Of a stretch of DNA of 64,000 nucleotides, positions 5,615 through 11,089 are shown one piece after another. The stretch is from Terriglobia bacterium (lineage in GTDB: Bacteria; Acidobacteriota; Terriglobia; Terriglobales; Acidobacteriaceae): the NCBI GenBank assembly GCA_020072585.1, contig JAIQGL010000009.1, positions 62,001 through 126,000 of the forward strand. The letters run 5' to 3'. Numbering within the stretch: position 1 is the stretch's first letter; each line of letters starts with the position of its first letter. The notes below the pieces were generated by a model, which worked only from the letters and a program-made list of their open reading frames with translations, was not told the origin of the DNA and searched no databases. A program made the translations under genes and the position numbers.

Positions 5615-5787
5615 TTCTCAGTCGCGCCTGCCGGCGCTCTGGCGCAAATCAGCAATCGTCAACAACGCACTACGGCGTCTAACGCATTCTGTAAACGAAA
5701 ACTATGGCTAGAACCTGTGATTTCAGCCGACTAATGGCACAATCTCTCATCCGCGATATTCCAGTCCCGCCAGGGACGGCCTGATAG

Positions 5788-5844
5788 TAGCCCGGTCACG
5801 TTTCCGAGTCCCGGCGAGCCGGGATGAGGAATAAGTGCCGGGTA
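5788..5844 (+). repeat. REP-like palindrome, copy 3
   Basis: Direct-orientation copy with the shared ends TAGCCCGG and TAAGTGCCGGGT and a different palindromic core centred on CCCGGCGAGCCGGG. It lies immediately after the companion palindrome at 5762-5787. Confidence 0.7.
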
Positions 5845-5918
5845 AGCAAAGAAAAGATCCTTCCGCGCTGCCGCAGGCCCGCGCGCAGCACAGCGGAGCG
5901 CGCATGGCAATTTTTATA

Positions 5919-6266: not shown

Positions 6267-6370
6267 CGGCTAAGAGCCAATGGCCAAAAGCTAAAGCTAA
6301 CGGGCAACGTCCGGTGTAGAAGCACCGAACGCGCCCTAACCGCAGTTCACCTGCTGGAGGCAGGCAGACC

Positions 6371-6746
6371 ATGGCTGTTTCTAAAGCTATACGCTCCAAT
6401 CCACCCGCGCAACCACACCCCCAACACGCCCACACCGAACCCGAGACCCCTCGCCCCAACCAACACCAGACCAAAGCCGAGATCTTCGATGTCCTCCGCC
6501 ACCTCAACCGCGGATACGGCATTGCTCTGGCCGCGCTCGACAAACTTGAAACCAAAGCCCGCCAAACCCAAGACCGCGCGCGTATCTTCCCCCCGGGCTC
6601 TGTATGGCTATCGCAGCCGCGCAGAGGCGCTCCGGGCCGAAACCAACCGCGACCTGCTCCGCATCCTTGCCGGACATGAAGACCAGGACGCAGCACGGTT
6701 TGCCATCCCCTTAACCGCCAAGGCCGCAAAGAGCGCAAAGTCATAG
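6371..6746 (+). pseudogene. small protein gene broken at a C6 run
   Basis: A good ribosome site (CTGGAGG) precedes ATG 6371. The first frame encodes a Pro/His-rich start and an amphipathic helix (AEIFDVLRHLNRGYGIALAA). At the six-C run 6589-6594 the protein-like sequence moves to another frame (LYGYRSRAEALRAETNRDLL, then RILAGHEDQDAARF) and stops at 6746. Removing one C gives a single protein of about 125 residues. This may be a real frameshift, slippage or a sequencing error. I do not recognise the family. Confidence 0.5.
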
Positions 6747-6852: not shown

Positions 6853-6971
6853 GATCTGAAACAACAGGCTCTTTGAAAATTTGCAATCAGCAGCCAGCAC
6901 TCAGCATTCAGCCCCCAACGATGCTTTGCGACCCTCTGCCGAAGGGTAGTGGCGTTGGGATTGGGATTGGG

Positions 6972-7037
6972 TCACCCAAGGGTGACGCAAGGATCACCCA
7001 AGGGTCGCCCAGGCGTCACGCAAGGACCACGCAAGGG
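6972..7037 (+). repeat. six 11-bp degenerate tandem repeats
   Basis: Six contiguous 11-base units with consensus TCACSCAAGGR can equally be read as three 22-base units. The period is close to one helical turn. The array ends 81 bases before the left end of the mobile element. The remainder of 6853-7118 shows no gene I can support. Confidence 0.7.
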
Positions 7038-7110
7038 TTGATTTGCAATTGGCCCTTTATTTTCAACAGAAGTTCAAAAAAGGCCGGGGTGGGTAGGAAC
7101 AGGAAGTTTA

Positions 7111-7118
7111 CTGAAAGG
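7111..7118. repeat. target-site duplication, left copy
   Basis: CTGAAAGG directly abuts the left inverted repeat; the identical octamer is at 10984-10991. Confidence 0.88.
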
Positions 7119-7140
7119 GGTAATAATATACTTCGCAAAA
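7119..7140 (+). repeat. left inverted repeat of the IS1595 element
   Basis: GGTAATAATATACTT followed by CGCAAAA. It matches the right end except at two bases, and those two bases fall where the right end has its TTGACA hexamer (here TTCGCA). Confidence 0.88.
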
Positions 7141-7175
7141 TGAAATAATTCTTCGGCCTGTTCGCTCTTTTTTCG

Positions 7176-7205
7176 TTGCTTTCAATTCAGGATCAAGGCT
7201 ATAAG
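7176..7205 (+). promoter_or_regulatory. possible promoter of the first passenger gene
   Basis: TTGCTT (7176-7181) and TATAAG (7200-7205) with 18-base spacing, 70 bases before the start codon at 7275. Weak match to the -35 consensus. Confidence 0.35.
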
Positions 7206-7274
7206 CGGGAACGAGACGCGCTCCGGTGTCACCCGCAACGCGCCTCTAACCAAAGCACCTGTATTGGAGGCACG

Positions 7275-7466
7275 ATGGCTAATGACGAGTTTACCAGCCG
7301 GGAAGGGCAGGCAATGTATCGCTTGGTGATACTGCTTACCGGTACGCTCAAGGTCGTTGTTACCCGATTGGAAGAGCTGGCTGGACACAAGGTTCTCAAC
7401 TCTGAATACCTGAAGGAACTCAAGCGATTAACGGACAAGATAGAATCAGAAATCGGCCCGAAGTGA
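7275..7466 (+). CDS. passenger protein, homologue of the resident 50645 gene
   Basis: A 63-residue helical protein starting at ATG 7275 behind TGGAGG. Aligned without gaps to the protein encoded at 50645-50950 it shares about 24 of 60 residues, including FTS near the N-terminus, YR, LL, RL-EL and LT. A homologous pair in the same window shows this is a real protein family of unknown function. A strong terminator follows immediately after the stop. No DNA-binding or catalytic motif is evident; an amphipathic two-helix structure is likely. Confidence 0.75.
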   Translation: MANDEFTSREGQAMYRLVILLTGTLKVVVTRLEELAGHKVLNSEYLKELKRLTDKIESEIGPK

Positions 7467-7489
7467 CCCCGCTGAAAAGCGGGGTTTTT
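7467..7489 (+). terminator. intrinsic terminator
   Basis: CCCCGCT, GAAA loop, AGCGGGG, then five T. It begins at the base after the stop codon of the passenger gene. Confidence 0.85.
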
Positions 7490-7575
7490 ACTTGCACTGC
7501 TATAATTCCAGCTTCAAAACACTAGCCCAATACCCTGCTTCTTCTTTTCCGCAATCTGCTGTGAGGATTTGAAAC

Positions 7576-7920
7576 ATGAGACTGTCTGCCGATGAAGCCA
7601 AAGAGCTACTCAATAAATGGGCCTCAGAAAAAATTCCAGTGAGAGCAGTATTTGTTGCCCGATCTGGGCATGTTGCTTCTGCATTATCGGGAACACTTTG
7701 GGGTGTCCCACCACAACGTGTAGCAGTCAAGTCATTCTCCAATCCAGATGAAGATTTCATGTATTTTCAATTTACGGGTTGTGCGTTCGAGTATGGCGAT
7801 ACCAGGGAAGCCCCTGCCACTTTGCAGGAATATGCAACAGGTAAATATGTGTCAGTGGTAACAGTCCTGCTGCCAGATTCGCTCGAACGTGTTTATTTGT
7901 TTGAGCTAAATAACGACTAG
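7576..7920 (+). CDS. passenger protein of unknown function, 114 aa
   Basis: ATG 7576 follows GAGG with normal spacing. The protein is mixed alpha/beta, acidic, with no signal peptide or membrane helix (for example DFMYFQFTGCAFEYGDT near the middle). The family is not recognised. It ends one base before the end of the converging 55-residue gene and lies inside the IS element, so it is cargo and possibly part of the defence module, though nothing in the sequence proves this. Confidence 0.65.
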   Translation: MRLSADEAKELLNKWASEKIPVRAVFVARSGHVASALSGTLWGVPPQRVAVKSFSNPDEDFMYFQFTGCAFEYGDTREAPATLQEYATGKYVSVVTVLLPDSLERVYLFELNND

Positions 7921-7921
7921 C

Positions 7922-8089
7922 TTATTTTTGTGCGCGCTTCTGTTCCTTCTTGCGTTCCTTCTTGCGCTTGTCCTTGGCTTCTCTCTTCAGCAGATCATCT
8001 TTTGAGACGGTGAATACATGGCGGAGAGCGTTATCAAATCGCTCTGATTCAGTCCTGCCGGGAATGTTTGGCGCTGGTAATGGTTTCAT
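7922..8089 (-). CDS. 55-aa Lys-rich protein coupled to AIPR
   Basis: ATG 8089 lies two bases after the AIPR stop codon, with AGGA inside the end of the AIPR gene, so translation is probably coupled. The protein has an N-terminal amphipathic part (SERFDNALRHVFTVSKDDLL) and a strongly basic tail (KDKRKKERKKEQKRAQK). This pattern is common in short accessory proteins that bind nucleic acid or regulate a neighbour. Its tight placement suggests a partner or inhibitor of the AIPR nuclease, which is an inference. Confidence 0.65.
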   Translation of the reverse strand: MKPLPAPNIPGRTESERFDNALRHVFTVSKDDLLKREAKDKRKKERKKEQKRAQK

Positions 8090-8091
8090 TG

Positions 8092-9852
8092 TTAGGATCC
8101 TGGGTTAGGTTGGGAAAATAGGTTTGGTTGGGCGGTCCCTGCTGCCGTCTTCGCTTCTTCTGAGGAACTCAAATCCTGCTCAAGGATCTTGCATTTTTGT
8201 GCATTCTTGAAAAGATTGGCCAAGTAATCGCTAGGATATCGTTCTTGCAGGGCTTGCGCCAATGCTGGGAGGATCCTGCGGGTCGCCGCCCTGCCCAGAT
8301 CCATGCTTTGCGCCTCAGATACTTTTTGATCGCGGAATTTCTTCACTTCAGGATCCTGAAAAACCAGATGCAATATGAACCTGTTACCGTGAACGGCTAC
8401 ATACCAGCCCCGAGGGTAAGGATCCTTGTTCATCTTATCCAGTTCATCCGATACGGCACGTGAGATCTGTACAGCCAGCCACATATGCCTAGCCGATAGA
8501 TGATTATTAAATAAAGTAGTGTACGGGGCTTTTTTGATGTCTCGCCATAATTGGCCAACCTCACGCTTGGCTTGAACCGCTAGTGTCACATCTCCCTTCG
8601 CACAGGCCAGCGCTATAGTCGCATCCTCAATGTTGCATCCATTTTCCTTCTGTGGATCCGCGTCGCCAGATTTGAAGGCATACTTCTTTCCATCTAGTTC
8701 CATTTCTGTGGCAAGGCGTTGCTGTTCAGTATCTAAAGCAGCAAAATCCCTGTGCTGAATTTCATTCTGAGTATTTGTTGCACGAGTGACATCTACTGCG
8801 AACCCCTCCGGGCAGCTCTCTAAAGAAATCAACCTTACATGAACCGACGCCGGAAGTTTCTGTAAGCCCAGGCCATTGCGTCGCACAGCGGCCTCCCATA
8901 TCACTCCCACAGTTTGAGCACCGTTCACGACACTCACACCCTCGCAATCAAATATGCCGACATCACGCGCATCGCCGTTTAAGAGTGTCTTGTCAACTTT
9001 TGAGCAAAGAATAGTGATGCCATTATTGAAGTACCAAAAGTGATGCGGCTCATTTGTTATAGTGCCACCGATTGCATCGTTGACATCGGTAGATCCTCTG
9101 TAAAACCTTAGATTCCGGCTCAAAAGTGGCTTGCCATGAACAGCCCAATTTGCGATATCAGAGAGACTAACCTGACCGTAATAAGCCCGATATGGAGAAT
9201 CTATTTTCCCCCATTGTCTGAGAGAAACCTGCAATTTTATTTTGTTGCCGGTAGTGGATCCGCTCAGATATGAATAGAGCCTAACGAGGTTCAGCTTTTC
9301 TACGCTAAAGACTTCCGTGTCCCCAACGTTATTTTGCTGTTCGAGGAAATTGTCGAACAACTTCTGGACAGACTCGCTGATTTGATCTGGGCTGCTATAT
9401 GCTAGCGCAAGAACAACCCTCACATCGGATCGCATCAAAAGGTTGGCTCTTAACTCGGCCTCGCGTTTCTTTATCTTGTCATTGAACCCTGAAAAATCGG
9501 CCTTAATGAGTTGCTGAATTCCATGTAGGAATTTTTGACATTCGCCCTCGTCAATTGTCCGGTTCCCATGGCTTGACCACTTGGACTGCACAATATAAAG
9601 GGTTTTTTCGTCAGCAGAAAAATGAACGGCATCAATTCCTTGATCCTGAAAACCATCAGTAACAGCTCGGGCCGCGTGTTCCGGATCCACGTCCGTGAGT
9701 ACAGTAAGGCAATATGCTGCCTGGGCTCGGGTCAGGAATTTTTTACGCTTCTCTTCGGGCTGCGCGAAAACCAGATCGCTAAGATCAATAAGATTCTCAA
9801 ACTGCTTGTCGAGAGCATGTGTTAGCCGTTGTATTGTGAGAATTACTTCCAC
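8092..9852 (-). CDS. AIPR-family abortive-infection phage-resistance protein
   Basis: A 586-residue protein. Residues 60-95 resemble a PD-(D/E)xK nuclease site (DQGIDAVHF with Asp74, then LYIVQSK with Gln89 and Lys91), as in Mrr-like enzymes. The AIPR core has FWYFNNGIT (272-280) and VVNGAQT (308-314), which I recognise as the family's conserved motifs. AIPR proteins are associated with abortive infection and DNA cleavage in phage defence. Start is GTG 9852; spacing to a ribosome site is poor, so the true start could be slightly inside. It follows the transposase by 102 bases on the same strand and precedes the coupled 55-residue gene. Confidence 0.85.
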   Translation of the reverse strand: MEVILTIQRLTHALDKQFENLIDLSDLVFAQPEEKRKKFLTRAQAAYCLTVLTDVDPEHAARAVTDGFQDQGIDAVHFSADEKTLYIVQSKWSSHGNRTIDEGECQKFLHGIQQLIKADFSGFNDKIKKREAELRANLLMRSDVRVVLALAYSSPDQISESVQKLFDNFLEQQNNVGDTEVFSVEKLNLVRLYSYLSGSTTGNKIKLQVSLRQWGKIDSPYRAYYGQVSLSDIANWAVHGKPLLSRNLRFYRGSTDVNDAIGGTITNEPHHFWYFNNGITILCSKVDKTLLNGDARDVGIFDCEGVSVVNGAQTVGVIWEAAVRRNGLGLQKLPASVHVRLISLESCPEGFAVDVTRATNTQNEIQHRDFAALDTEQQRLATEMELDGKKYAFKSGDADPQKENGCNIEDATIALACAKGDVTLAVQAKREVGQLWRDIKKAPYTTLFNNHLSARHMWLAVQISRAVSDELDKMNKDPYPRGWYVAVHGNRFILHLVFQDPEVKKFRDQKVSEAQSMDLGRAATRRILPALAQALQERYPSDYLANLFKNAQKCKILEQDLSSSEEAKTAAGTAQPNLFSQPNPGS

Positions 9853-9954
9853 AGGAAATTTGCCGGGATCCTTTGTGAAGATATTTTATCAGGATCCCGC
9901 ACACCCAAGGCTTATTTCATATTTCTCCGTTTGCCCCGCTTTAAGCGGCCATAA

Positions 9955-10935
9955 TTAGAAGGGATCCGCTTGCCCCTGTCCCTCCTTGCCGGTCAGTTCT
10001 TTATATGTGATCCGCTTTCCCACGATCTGCGAGAGGGCAATGGAGAATCTTTCGCCGTCGTTCAATCTGTTTCCGCGATTATCCTTCCGGTGATTGTAGC
10101 GGAATGCCTGCTCATCCAAATAACGGAACAGATGAAACGGCTCGACTGCTACGTAAGTGCCATTCAAACCGCGTTTCAACAGCGACCAAAAGTTTTCAAT
10201 TCCGTTGGTATGAACACGTCCAGTAACGTACCGTTCCGCGTGGTCTACAAACTGATGCACGTATTCGTCCTTCAAACCCTTGTAGGCTTGCAACTCATCG
10301 CTGTAAAGAAAAGTGCCCAGAGCTACATGCTTGTTGACGTTCTGCCTCAGAGTATCAGTGAAACGGTCGGTAATAATCTCAGTGCGAACGTGTCCACCGC
10401 GCTCGACCATTCCCATTACAAGCACTTTGTCTTTTGCGTTGTTTCCATGGCGAGTGGTGATGCGCCGCGCCTTCACATCCTTGTGCATGTTCCGGGCCTT
10501 GCCGCCGATGAAAGTCTCATCAACTTCGACCTCACTCATGCCGCCGCCGAGCTTCACAAGCGAACCTTGCTGCAAGGCAAGCCGGATCCTGTGATCCATG
10601 AACCATGCCGATTTTTGGGTGACGTTTAGTGCGCGGTGAATTTCGTAAGACGAAACGCCGTTCCTGCAATTAACAACCATCCACATAGCGGTAAGCCACT
10701 TGTCCAGACCCAATGGAGAATCTTCAAAAATGGTCCCGGTCTTGAGCGTGAACTGTGGCGCTTTGTGCTTGTCGCGGCAATGCCAGCGATTGTACTTCTC
10801 CAAAAACAGGACGTTGGCGCTTCCACACTTGGGGCAGGTGACGCCGTTAGGCCAGCGCCGCGCTACCATGTATTCGCGGCAATTGACCGGGCTGGAAAAG
10901 TAAACAATCGCTTCTTGAAGTGTGGTCGGTTCCAT
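9955..10935 (-). CDS. IS1595-family transposase (ISXO2-like)
   Basis: A 326-residue transposase. It has an N-terminal zinc ribbon (CPKCG at 34-38, WHCRDKH near 51-57), a helix-turn-helix region (SYEIHRALNVTQKSAW) and the catalytic core with Asp139 in VEVDET, Asp213 in YSDELQAY, Asn244 in TNGIENFW and Lys254, the DDN-K arrangement of the family. Length is normal and no indel is seen. I chose ATG 10935 rather than the in-frame TTG 10941 because that TTG overlaps the -10 box. Transcription from the promoter in the right inverted repeat would start almost on the ATG. Confidence 0.92.
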   Translation of the reverse strand: MEPTTLQEAIVYFSSPVNCREYMVARRWPNGVTCPKCGSANVLFLEKYNRWHCRDKHKAPQFTLKTGTIFEDSPLGLDKWLTAMWMVVNCRNGVSSYEIHRALNVTQKSAWFMDHRIRLALQQGSLVKLGGGMSEVEVDETFIGGKARNMHKDVKARRITTRHGNNAKDKVLVMGMVERGGHVRTEIITDRFTDTLRQNVNKHVALGTFLYSDELQAYKGLKDEYVHQFVDHAERYVTGRVHTNGIENFWSLLKRGLNGTYVAVEPFHLFRYLDEQAFRYNHRKDNRGNRLNDGERFSIALSQIVGKRITYKELTGKEGQGQADPF

Positions 10936-10941
10936 ACTCAA

Positions 10942-10970
10942 ATCTTAGCGGGAAAGGTCTGTTTTGTCAA
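10942..10970 (-). promoter_or_regulatory. transposase promoter built into the right inverted repeat
   Basis: On the minus strand TTGACA (10970-10965) lies inside the right inverted repeat, and TAAGAT (10947-10942) follows after 17 bases. The transposase ATG is seven bases beyond the -10. Transposase bound to the terminus would occlude the -35. Confidence 0.7.
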
Positions 10971-10983
10971 GTATATTATTACC
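10962..10983 (-). repeat. right inverted repeat of the IS1595 element
   Basis: Reverse complement reads GGTAATAATATACTTGACAA and continues AA. It abuts the target duplication CTGAAAGG at 10984-10991. Confidence 0.88.
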
Positions 10984-11089
10984 CTGAAAGGTAAAATCCG
11001 CAGGAACATAAGTTCGCTACGTTGATTCGCCTGATAGATTCTGGCGAGGGCAGGGTTCCCTCGCGTACGCTCGTGATTGCACAAAAGCC

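What the first reader, a model, noticed from the sequence alone, without database searches (positions are those of the whole stretch)
7111..10991. Intact IS1595-family element carrying an abortive-infection (AIPR) cargo
Seen: 22-bp inverted ends, perfect 8-bp duplication CTGAAAGG, full transposase, and between them an AIPR gene and three small genes. Known: IS1595 elements duplicate 8 bp and several members carry passenger genes; AIPR proteins act in phage abortive infection. Inferred: this is a minimal transposable defence island of 3.9 kb moved by one simple transposase. The combination of IS1595 ends with AIPR plus a coupled Lys-rich gene and two unknown genes may be undescribed.
Basis: partly seen in the sequence, partly recalled or inferred. 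Interest (0 to 1): 0.85.

Follow-up and report, generated by a model that had tools for sequence, protein, structure and literature searches.

The report
Cargo transposon family with Lys-rich gene
The window holds one intact-looking member of a large family of small soil-bacterial transposons that carry changing passenger genes, often of kinds used against viruses, together with the same tiny lysine-rich gene, which may be an unrecognised working part of the transposon.

Summary
At 7111-10991 lies an IS1595-family element (3865 bp, ends 20/22, perfect 8-bp TSD) with an open transposase, an AIPR gene and three small genes; it is single-copy in its genome. It is one of 112 related elements that I delimited (transposase at least 45% identical; the named ones are mostly Acidobacteriota). 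Of these, 109 have perfect TSDs, and none is shorter than 1.7 kb, so no plain IS form was seen. Cargo is diverse (64 clusters in 94 elements) and includes many defence- or toxin-type genes. It is in 110 of 112 elements, in 117 of 128 transposase copies taken regardless of ends, and in 0 of 8 more distant IS1595 elements. It usually sits directly downstream of cargo, but in 18 of 112 no such cargo was found, so it seems to belong to the element rather than to one cargo. The AIPR N-terminus models as a PD-(D/E)XK-like nuclease. Passenger-bearing IS1595 elements are known; I found no description of this clade in the papers searched. Function is untested.

The parts
7111..7118 (.). target-site duplication, left copy (CTGAAAGG)
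   Evidence: sequence
7119..7140 (+). left terminal inverted repeat GGTAATAATATACTTCGCAAAA
   Evidence: matches the family end GGYAATAATATACTTGAC
7205..7274 (+). structured 5' leader of the 63-aa gene, a diverged copy of a leader repeated in this genome
7275..7466 (+). 63-aa ORF of unknown function (ATG inside the longer ORF listed); similar short ORFs follow the same leader elsewhere in the genus
7576..7920 (+). 114-aa ORF, no match above a cut-off
7922..8089 (-). 55-aa Lys-rich protein, hallmark gene of the transposon clade
8092..9852 (-). AIPR (PF10592; PADLOC AbiU 8e-31): modelled PD-(D/E)XK-like domain (about residues 16-204) plus a region (218-363) weakly like ParB-N/SspE
9955..10941 (-). 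IS1595-family DDE transposase with zinc ribbon (start TTG 10941 or in-frame ATG 10935)
10962..10983 (-). right terminal inverted repeat (GGTAATAATATACTTGACAAAA on the - strand)
10984..10991 (.). target-site duplication, right copy (CTGAAAGG)
   Evidence: sequence

Best explanation
The window holds a complete transposon of an IS1595-family clade, known here mainly from Acidobacteriota, whose conserved parts are the inverted ends, the DDE transposase and a small Lys-rich protein; the remaining genes are exchangeable cargo. Shown: it inserted with an 8-bp duplication; relatives with the same kind of ends carry different cargo; nearly every copy keeps the Lys-rich gene. Inferred: the transposase binds the ends and makes 8-bp staggered insertions; the Lys-rich protein (a short conserved stretch followed by a basic tail, by sequence only; no structure was predicted) binds nucleic acid and assists or restrains transposition; the AIPR is a PD-(D/E)XK-type nuclease with a ParB/Srx-like sensor region that cuts invading DNA or kills the infected cell, so the element pays its host through phage defence.
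For: Perfect TSD and matching ends. 112 unique elements, 109 with perfect TSDs (a TSD with at most one mismatch was a search criterion, so see the controls). The second element of the same genome interrupts an ORF whose joined flanks read through. Lys-rich ORF: 110 of 112 elements at E<0.01; 117 of 128 close transposase copies with >=4 kb downstream, regardless of ends; 51 of 53 in the second set with an HMM trained on the first, 43 of 53 with the 14-sequence seed HMM, two of the 53 being duplicates of first-set elements; 0 of 8 distant elements. It accompanies many cargo types, and 18 of 112 have no same-strand cargo ORF found upstream. Lys-rich and transposase distances correlate (Mantel r 0.356; largest of 999 permutations 0.119). 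Defence-type cargo. AIPR fold: FokI Z 9.0 (145 aligned, rmsd 3.4), MspJI 7.6, HamA of Hachiman 7.5, with invariant D70 and Q89 and near-invariant G72 and D74.
Against: No expression, transposition or phage data. The Lys-rich gene is directly downstream of cargo in 94 of 112 elements, is joined in frame to it in at least two, and is kept in a transposase-less copy (L165), which also fits a cargo partner. Foldseek gave no PDB match at E<=0.001 for the AIPR model; the nuclease call rests on a second-look aligner and motifs, unrelated RNA-polymerase chains follow at Z 5.7, and PMC3506569 (passages) assigns AIPR an N-terminal HEPN domain instead. K91 is not kept in all 21 aligned AIPRs. Seven of ten cargo proteins given singly to PADLOC had no match, and no background was scored. 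No empty site was found for the window element itself.
Confidence: 0.6

Rival explanations
1. The Lys-rich protein is the partner of the cargo gene (antitoxin, assembly factor or translationally coupled regulator) rather than of the transposase; cargo and Lys-rich gene travel as one cassette.
For: Same-strand cargo ORF upstream in 94 of 112; the Lys-rich gene is codirectional with the transposase in 24 and convergent in 88, with about 11 changes on the transposase tree; in-frame joins with a DUF3800-like protein in L088 and an adenine-methylase-like protein in L090 (family names by eye and cluster); L165 has ends, a DUF3800-like gene (by eye) and the Lys-rich gene but no transposase nearby; a small residual similarity of Lys-rich proteins that share a cargo cluster (p 0.008 of 500 permutations).
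Against: One small protein would have to serve 64 BLAST clusters of cargo (fewer superfamilies, since DUF3800-like proteins split into several); in 18 of 112 no upstream same-strand cargo was found, and in L215, L222, L224, L228 and L240 the gene follows the transposase with an opposing ORF beyond it; correlation with the transposase.
Confidence: 0.27
2. The cargo is ordinary accessory genes, not defence; the element is a generic transporter IS.
For: Many cargo ORFs have no defence match (7 of 10 singly tested), and some look like membrane or secreted proteins by eye.
Against: Recurrent defence- or toxin-type families: DUF3800 in 8 of 76 and 9 of 88 proteins; a HEPN-like cluster in 13 elements; methylases, a type IIG enzyme, AIPR, GmrSD, SLFN/AlbA, AAA_21, Panacea. 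No background set was scored, so enrichment is not quantified.
Confidence: 0.22
3. The Lys-rich ORF is not a protein gene but a by-product of a constrained DNA or RNA segment next to the transposase 3' end.
For: Short, low complexity, often ending within a few bases of the transposase stop.
Against: A protein HMM finds it at different places in the element, in both orientations and far from the transposase. In the first set, of 975 kb searched (185 kb in elements), the one hit at E<0.001 outside the element in question belongs to a neighbouring element.
Confidence: 0.05
4. The ends and octamers are coincidental and the genes are resident.
For: None found.
Confidence: 0.01

Closest known systems
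Transporter IS (tIS) of the IS1595 family, e.g. tISCpe8 and MTnSag1/tISSag10 (named in passages of PMC5704250; Siguier 2009 seen only as a cited reference)
   Same: IS1595-type DDE transposase, boundaries of DDE elements, passenger genes
   Different: Those are described there as mobilisable elements, one of them a lincomycin-resistance element; here a whole clade carries cargo and a near-universal small Lys-rich gene. I did not search for relaxases
Tn7-like transposons with defence cargo (PMC8649781, start of abstract in the listing)
   Same: Transposons with highly variable cargo including defence systems
   Different: Here a single DDE transposase plus one tiny gene, median length about 2.5 kb; Tn7 genes were not searched for
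Tn3-family toxin-antitoxin pairs proposed to be integral to the transposition module (PMC7157771, abstract and outline)
   Same: Small non-transposase genes kept with the element, possibly regulating transposition
   Different: Here a single small basic protein without a recognised toxin partner, and another transposase family
AIPR / AbiU abortive-infection proteins (PF10592; PADLOC AbiU)
   Same: AIPR domain above cut-off; other elements' AIPRs L114 and L208 match PADLOC AbiU at 1.5e-139 and 6.5e-155
   Different: Window protein matches AbiU more weakly (8e-31); its N-terminus models as FokI-like; no restriction-modification gene was seen beside it in the element

Membership tests
IS1595-family element | DDE_Tnp_IS1595 plus zinc ribbon transposase | tested here: met
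   PF12762 135.5 bits (cut-off 27), PF12760 38.3 (25.4), NF033547 174 (75); two D columns kept in 112 of 112, and E and K of the HTNGIENFWSLLK motif in 111 and 110 of 112 (catalytic assignment recalled)
IS1595-family element | terminal inverted repeats and 8-bp target duplication (recalled as typical of the family) | tested here: met
IS1595-family element | transposition activity | not testable with these tools
   sequence only
Transporter IS (tIS) | passenger genes between the ends of an IS-like element | tested here: met
   AIPR and other ORFs inside 7119-10983
AIPR family (PF10592) | domain score above Pfam gathering cut-off | tested here: met
   116.2 bits against 25
AIPR/AbiU abortive-infection system | phage resistance by abortive infection | not testable with these tools
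   no phage assay
MZA system (MzaE) | NCBIfam MzaE equivalog cut-off | tested here: not met
   42.7 bits against 1050
PD-(D/E)XK nucleases (AIPR N-terminus) | restriction-endonuclease-like fold | tested here: inconclusive
   VIA-align Z 9.0 to FokI (145 aligned, rmsd 3.4), 7.6 MspJI (139, rmsd 5.2), 7.5 HamA (161, rmsd 4.0); Foldseek nothing at E<=0.001
HEPN (most frequent cargo cluster, not in the window) | R-x4-6-H motif (recalled) and HEPN fold | tested here: inconclusive
   R238 and H243 invariant in 13 aligned proteins; RnlA Z 11.0 (138 aligned, rmsd 3.1), titled HEPN proteins 2hsb 9.8 and 1wol 8.6; but designed helical bundles score as high on the other half, and Foldseek gave nothing at E<=0.001

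The most novel reading that the evidence does not exclude
The Lys-rich protein is an unrecognised second core component of a cargo-obligate transposon clade: a small nucleic-acid-binding factor that couples transposition to cargo (for example by controlling when the transposase acts or by protecting the cargo transcript), making these elements dedicated vehicles for single defence genes outside classical defence islands.
Probability: 0.4. Interest if true: 0.78.

Novelty: new variant of a known kind. Interest (0 to 1): 0.62.

Why it matters
If right, the shared ends and the Lys-rich gene give a simple handle for finding many single-operon mobile cassettes, a good share with unknown genes that are candidates for new anti-phage or toxin systems in poorly studied soil bacteria. 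It also raises a testable question: why does a one-transposase element keep an extra tiny basic protein in nearly every copy?

Tried and rejected
Rejected: that the Lys-rich gene is specific to AIPR (110 of 112 elements). Rejected: that the octamers are chance.

Led nowhere: an empty site at the window locus. The right flank (an ORF that looks like lpxB, name recalled) is found in 8 of 9 same-genus genomes counting the own, but the left flank matches many places in the genus and did not align beside it. PDB sequence searches gave no match for AIPR (E<=1) and one at E 0.73 for the Lys-rich profile. Rfam at gathering thresholds gave no match in the window and four loci. On plasmids 49 records held transposase relatives, none at 60% or more, the 15 listed at most 39%. 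In viral contigs 10 loci matched; 5 held elements with perfect TSD and the Lys-rich gene (L332, L333, L334, L335, L338), but PHROG matches of ten flanking proteins (methylases, a helicase, HNH, a ParB-like protein; five without annotated function or match) do not prove phage origin. The phylum-wide Lys-rich search found 8 of 247 genomes, all in the window's family; no more than 26 candidates per genome were scored, and G034, which has a weak copy (L126), was missed, so it may undercount. For the AIPR model no chain titled HEPN appeared among the 50 VIA rows; that is no evidence against. Literature: searches for IS1595 with passenger gene, Acidobacteri, anti-phage, lysine-rich, and passenger/accessory/small ORF, for DUF3800 with transposase, for defence cargo, for AIPR, and for Acidobacteri with defense systems showed no listed title or abstract start describing this clade; two lists were cut (15 of 40, 10 of 92). 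I read passages of four papers and one abstract and outline. PMC2753038 is not held.

Rows dropped: first-set elements were kept if the TSD was perfect, length under 7 kb and end score at least 16, plus two with one TSD mismatch; the second set was kept at end score at least 16. In the first set 79 of 101 transposase hits gave some pair, and 69 were kept; in the second set 53 were kept and 28 hits failed, many near contig ends. Two duplicates were removed. For Pfam and PADLOC I gave 76 first-set ORFs, chosen by hand from the 106 and others, and all 88 second-set ORFs; the family tables show only the first 25 families (of 36, 96, 35 and 271). Four in-frame joins were called automatically (L062, L088, L089, L090); only L088 and L090 were looked at.
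Full report
What is there. The sequence at 7111-10991 is a complete IS1595-family element of 3865 bp between perfect 8-bp duplications CTGAAAGG. Its ends are identical over 15 bp and match 20 of 22 and 20 of 24. Transposase and AIPR pass curated cut-offs. In reading order on the minus strand come transposase, AIPR and the 55-aa Lys-rich ORF, which starts 2 nt after the AIPR stop. Two small ORFs of 63 and 114 aa run the other way. The only full-length copy in the genome is this one.

A second element in the same genome. The same kind of ends occurs at C31:163298 (two mismatches) and C41:1661. Both outer flanks carry CAGCAATG, and the joined flanks read through as one 423-codon ORF that looks like a SWIM-type transposase (name by eye). 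The two contigs are paired by inference: both break inside the element, so its middle is not seen. The C31 part carries a different cargo (90, 218 and 290 aa, the last HNH-like by eye) and again a Lys-rich ORF, here 62 aa.

A family of cargo transposons. The transposase has relatives at E<=0.001 in 96 of 150 genomes of the same family. I fetched 100 regions, most around close copies, and, as a second set with names, 80 loci from genome contigs. Searching for paired ends with an 8-bp duplication gave 69 kept elements in the first set, 61 with a transposase at least 45% identical to the window's and 8 more distant, and 53 in the second. After removal of two duplicates there are 112 close elements, 109 with perfect TSDs. 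Because a TSD with at most one mismatch was required, I add two controls. Of 29 loci whose far end was found by motif alone, 24 had a perfect TSD, one had one mismatch and four none (counted). Octamers of different elements match in 28 of 12,432 pairings. Lengths run from 1727 to 6983 bp, median about 2.5 kb, none below 1500, so every delimited copy carries DNA beyond the transposase; the copies that could not be delimited are not covered by this. The named hosts are mostly Acidobacteriota, with a few assemblies labelled Deltaproteobacteria, Candidatus Binatus, Dehalococcoidia, Chthoniobacterales and Armatimonadetes; most are MAGs, so binning errors are possible.

The Lys-rich gene is the hallmark. 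An HMM from 14 sequences found it in 35 of the first 38 elements. After iteration on the first set it is in 61 of 61 close elements (57 at E<0.001, four at 0.0012-0.0029) and 0 of 8 distant ones, and in 51 of 53 elements of the second set (43 of 53 with the seed HMM). Over the union it is 110 of 112 at E<0.01. Without regard to ends, 117 of 128 close transposase copies with at least 4 kb of downstream sequence have it within 6.5 kb (146 of 169 over all copies). Of the 11 misses, three loci have a hit elsewhere (L076, L233, L241), four are borderline (E 0.015-0.062) and four have none or weaker (L072, L118, L139, L214). In the 2.16 Mb examined, 142 of 145 hits at E<0.001 lie within 6.5 kb downstream of a close transposase and the other three are those just named; as the loci were fetched for their transposases, the fairer control is that in the first set 185 of 975 kb is element and only one hit lay outside the element in question, in the neighbouring element of L109. 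The core is F-x9-V followed by S or P and K or H, then a basic tail. The PDB profile search gave one match at E 0.73.

Core gene or cargo partner? For a cargo partner: in 94 of 112 a same-strand cargo ORF of at least 90 aa lies upstream (median 3.5 nt from its stop to the HMM core); the gene is convergent with the transposase in 88 and codirectional in 24, with about 11 changes on a FastTree transposase tree; L058 and L080 have Lys-rich proteins nearest to the codirectional type but transposases nearest to the convergent type; L088 and L090 read through from cargo into the Lys-rich sequence; L165 has ends 1487 bp apart with 7 of 8 TSD bases, a DUF3800-like gene (by eye) and the Lys-rich gene, but no transposase in the 3.1-kb locus. 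For a core gene: it accompanies 64 cargo clusters; in 18 of 112 no such cargo was found upstream, and in L215, L222, L224, L228 and L240 it follows the transposase with an opposing ORF beyond it; its distances track those of the transposase (110 elements, Mantel r 0.356, permutation maximum 0.119). A small residual effect of shared cargo also exists (p 0.008). I favour a core accessory or regulatory role, with a cargo partner as the main rival.

Cargo. 94 upstream cargo proteins fall into 64 single-linkage BLAST clusters. Pfam in 76 hand-chosen proteins of the first set: DUF3800 8, AIPR 2, RelA_SpoT 2, PIN 2, and single MmeI-type, D12 methylase, Panacea, DUF4411, IrrE-like and SLFN/AlbA hits among the 25 families shown of 36. 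In 88 proteins of the second set: DUF3800 9, C5 methylase 2, HNH 2, DUF6932 2, and single EcoRI methylase, Vsr, GmrSD, AAA_21, RhuM, AIPR, SLFN/AlbA and Panacea hits among 25 shown of 35. Of ten cargo proteins given singly to PADLOC three matched. The largest cluster has 12 members, 13 with L206 aligned; no Pfam family other than DUF3800 was matched by more than two proteins in either set, so none covers it. Its invariant R238-x4-H243 and a helical model whose C-terminal half aligns to RnlA at Z 11.0 and to titled HEPN proteins at 8.6-9.8 suggest a HEPN ribonuclease; helical models score high easily. No background was scored, so 'defence-rich' is a description, not a measured enrichment.

The window's cargo. 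AIPR relatives occur in other members: L114 and L208 inside delimited elements; L252 (with one stop codon inside) with transposase, end-like motifs and the Lys-rich ORF; L273 with transposase and the Lys-rich ORF; L249 and L271 with the Lys-rich ORF. L250 and L251 (43 and 41%) show neither a close transposase nor the Lys-rich ORF in their loci of about 1.5 kb to each side, so AIPR also lives elsewhere. The model of the window AIPR (mean pLDDT 85.3, pTM 0.71) aligns over residues 16-204 with FokI (Z 9.0), MspJI (7.6) and HamA (7.5), ahead of unrelated rows at 5.7, and weakly over 218-363 with ParB-N (4.8) and SspE (4.5); Foldseek alone was not significant. Invariant D70 and Q89 and near-invariant G72 and D74 fit a PD-(D/E)XK variant, by inference. 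PMC3506569 (passages) links AbiU1/AIPR to RM systems and assigns an N-terminal HEPN domain, which this model does not suggest.

Comparison. Passenger-bearing IS1595 elements are known (tISCpe8, MTnSag1; passages of PMC5704250). Tn7-like elements carry diverse defence cargo (PMC8649781, listing), and Tn3 elements carry toxin-antitoxin pairs thought to belong to the transposition module (PMC7157771, abstract). The present clade works like a miniature of these but has its own ends and its own small gene. I therefore call it a new variant of a known kind.

Noticed in passing
window 6305-6372 and 7205-7277; L280-L307 and others: A structured 5' leader (CGGGCAGCGCCCGGTG-loop-CACCGAACGCGCCCTAACC...GGAGGC..ATGGCT) directly before short ORFs: exact core 39 times in the window's genome (reversed control 0), 1-4 times in five of eight same-genus relatives, 0 in four genomes of the same order; ten-pair consensus with a few compensatory changes over 36 sequences; no Rfam match in the window and four loci. 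A GCCT/AGGC pairing, not in the computed consensus, could hide the ribosome-binding site. Possibly an undescribed regulatory RNA.
   Followed up: partly
window 7205-7277, L095 and C31:163298 onward: Three same-genus IS1595 elements carry this leader plus a short gene near the end far from the transposase (L095's ends lack a confirmed TSD); a 90-aa relative of the C31 gene is also in a distant IS1595 element of the same genome (L092, by eye).
   Followed up: partly
window 8095-10589: GGATCC occurs 11 times in the element against 12 in the other 60 kb; shuffles of the 6.9-kb locus give 1.7 on average, at most 8. No other of the 61 close first-set elements has five or more.
   Followed up: partly
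L165, 563-2050: Copy without transposase but with both ends, 7 of 8 TSD bases, a DUF3800-like gene and the Lys-rich gene.
   Followed up: partly
L091, L092, L109, L143, L145-L148: Eight distant IS1595 elements (transposase 33-38% identical) in the same family of hosts also carry extra ORFs but no Lys-rich gene.
   Followed up: partly
window about 5763-5905 and 6926-7093: Left flank holds repeats of about 140-170 bp found in many places in the genus; also 11-nt direct repeats at 6969-7034.
   Followed up: no
L332, L333, L334, L335, L338: Members with perfect TSD and Lys-rich gene on contigs classed as viral; phage origin of the contigs not shown.
   Followed up: partly
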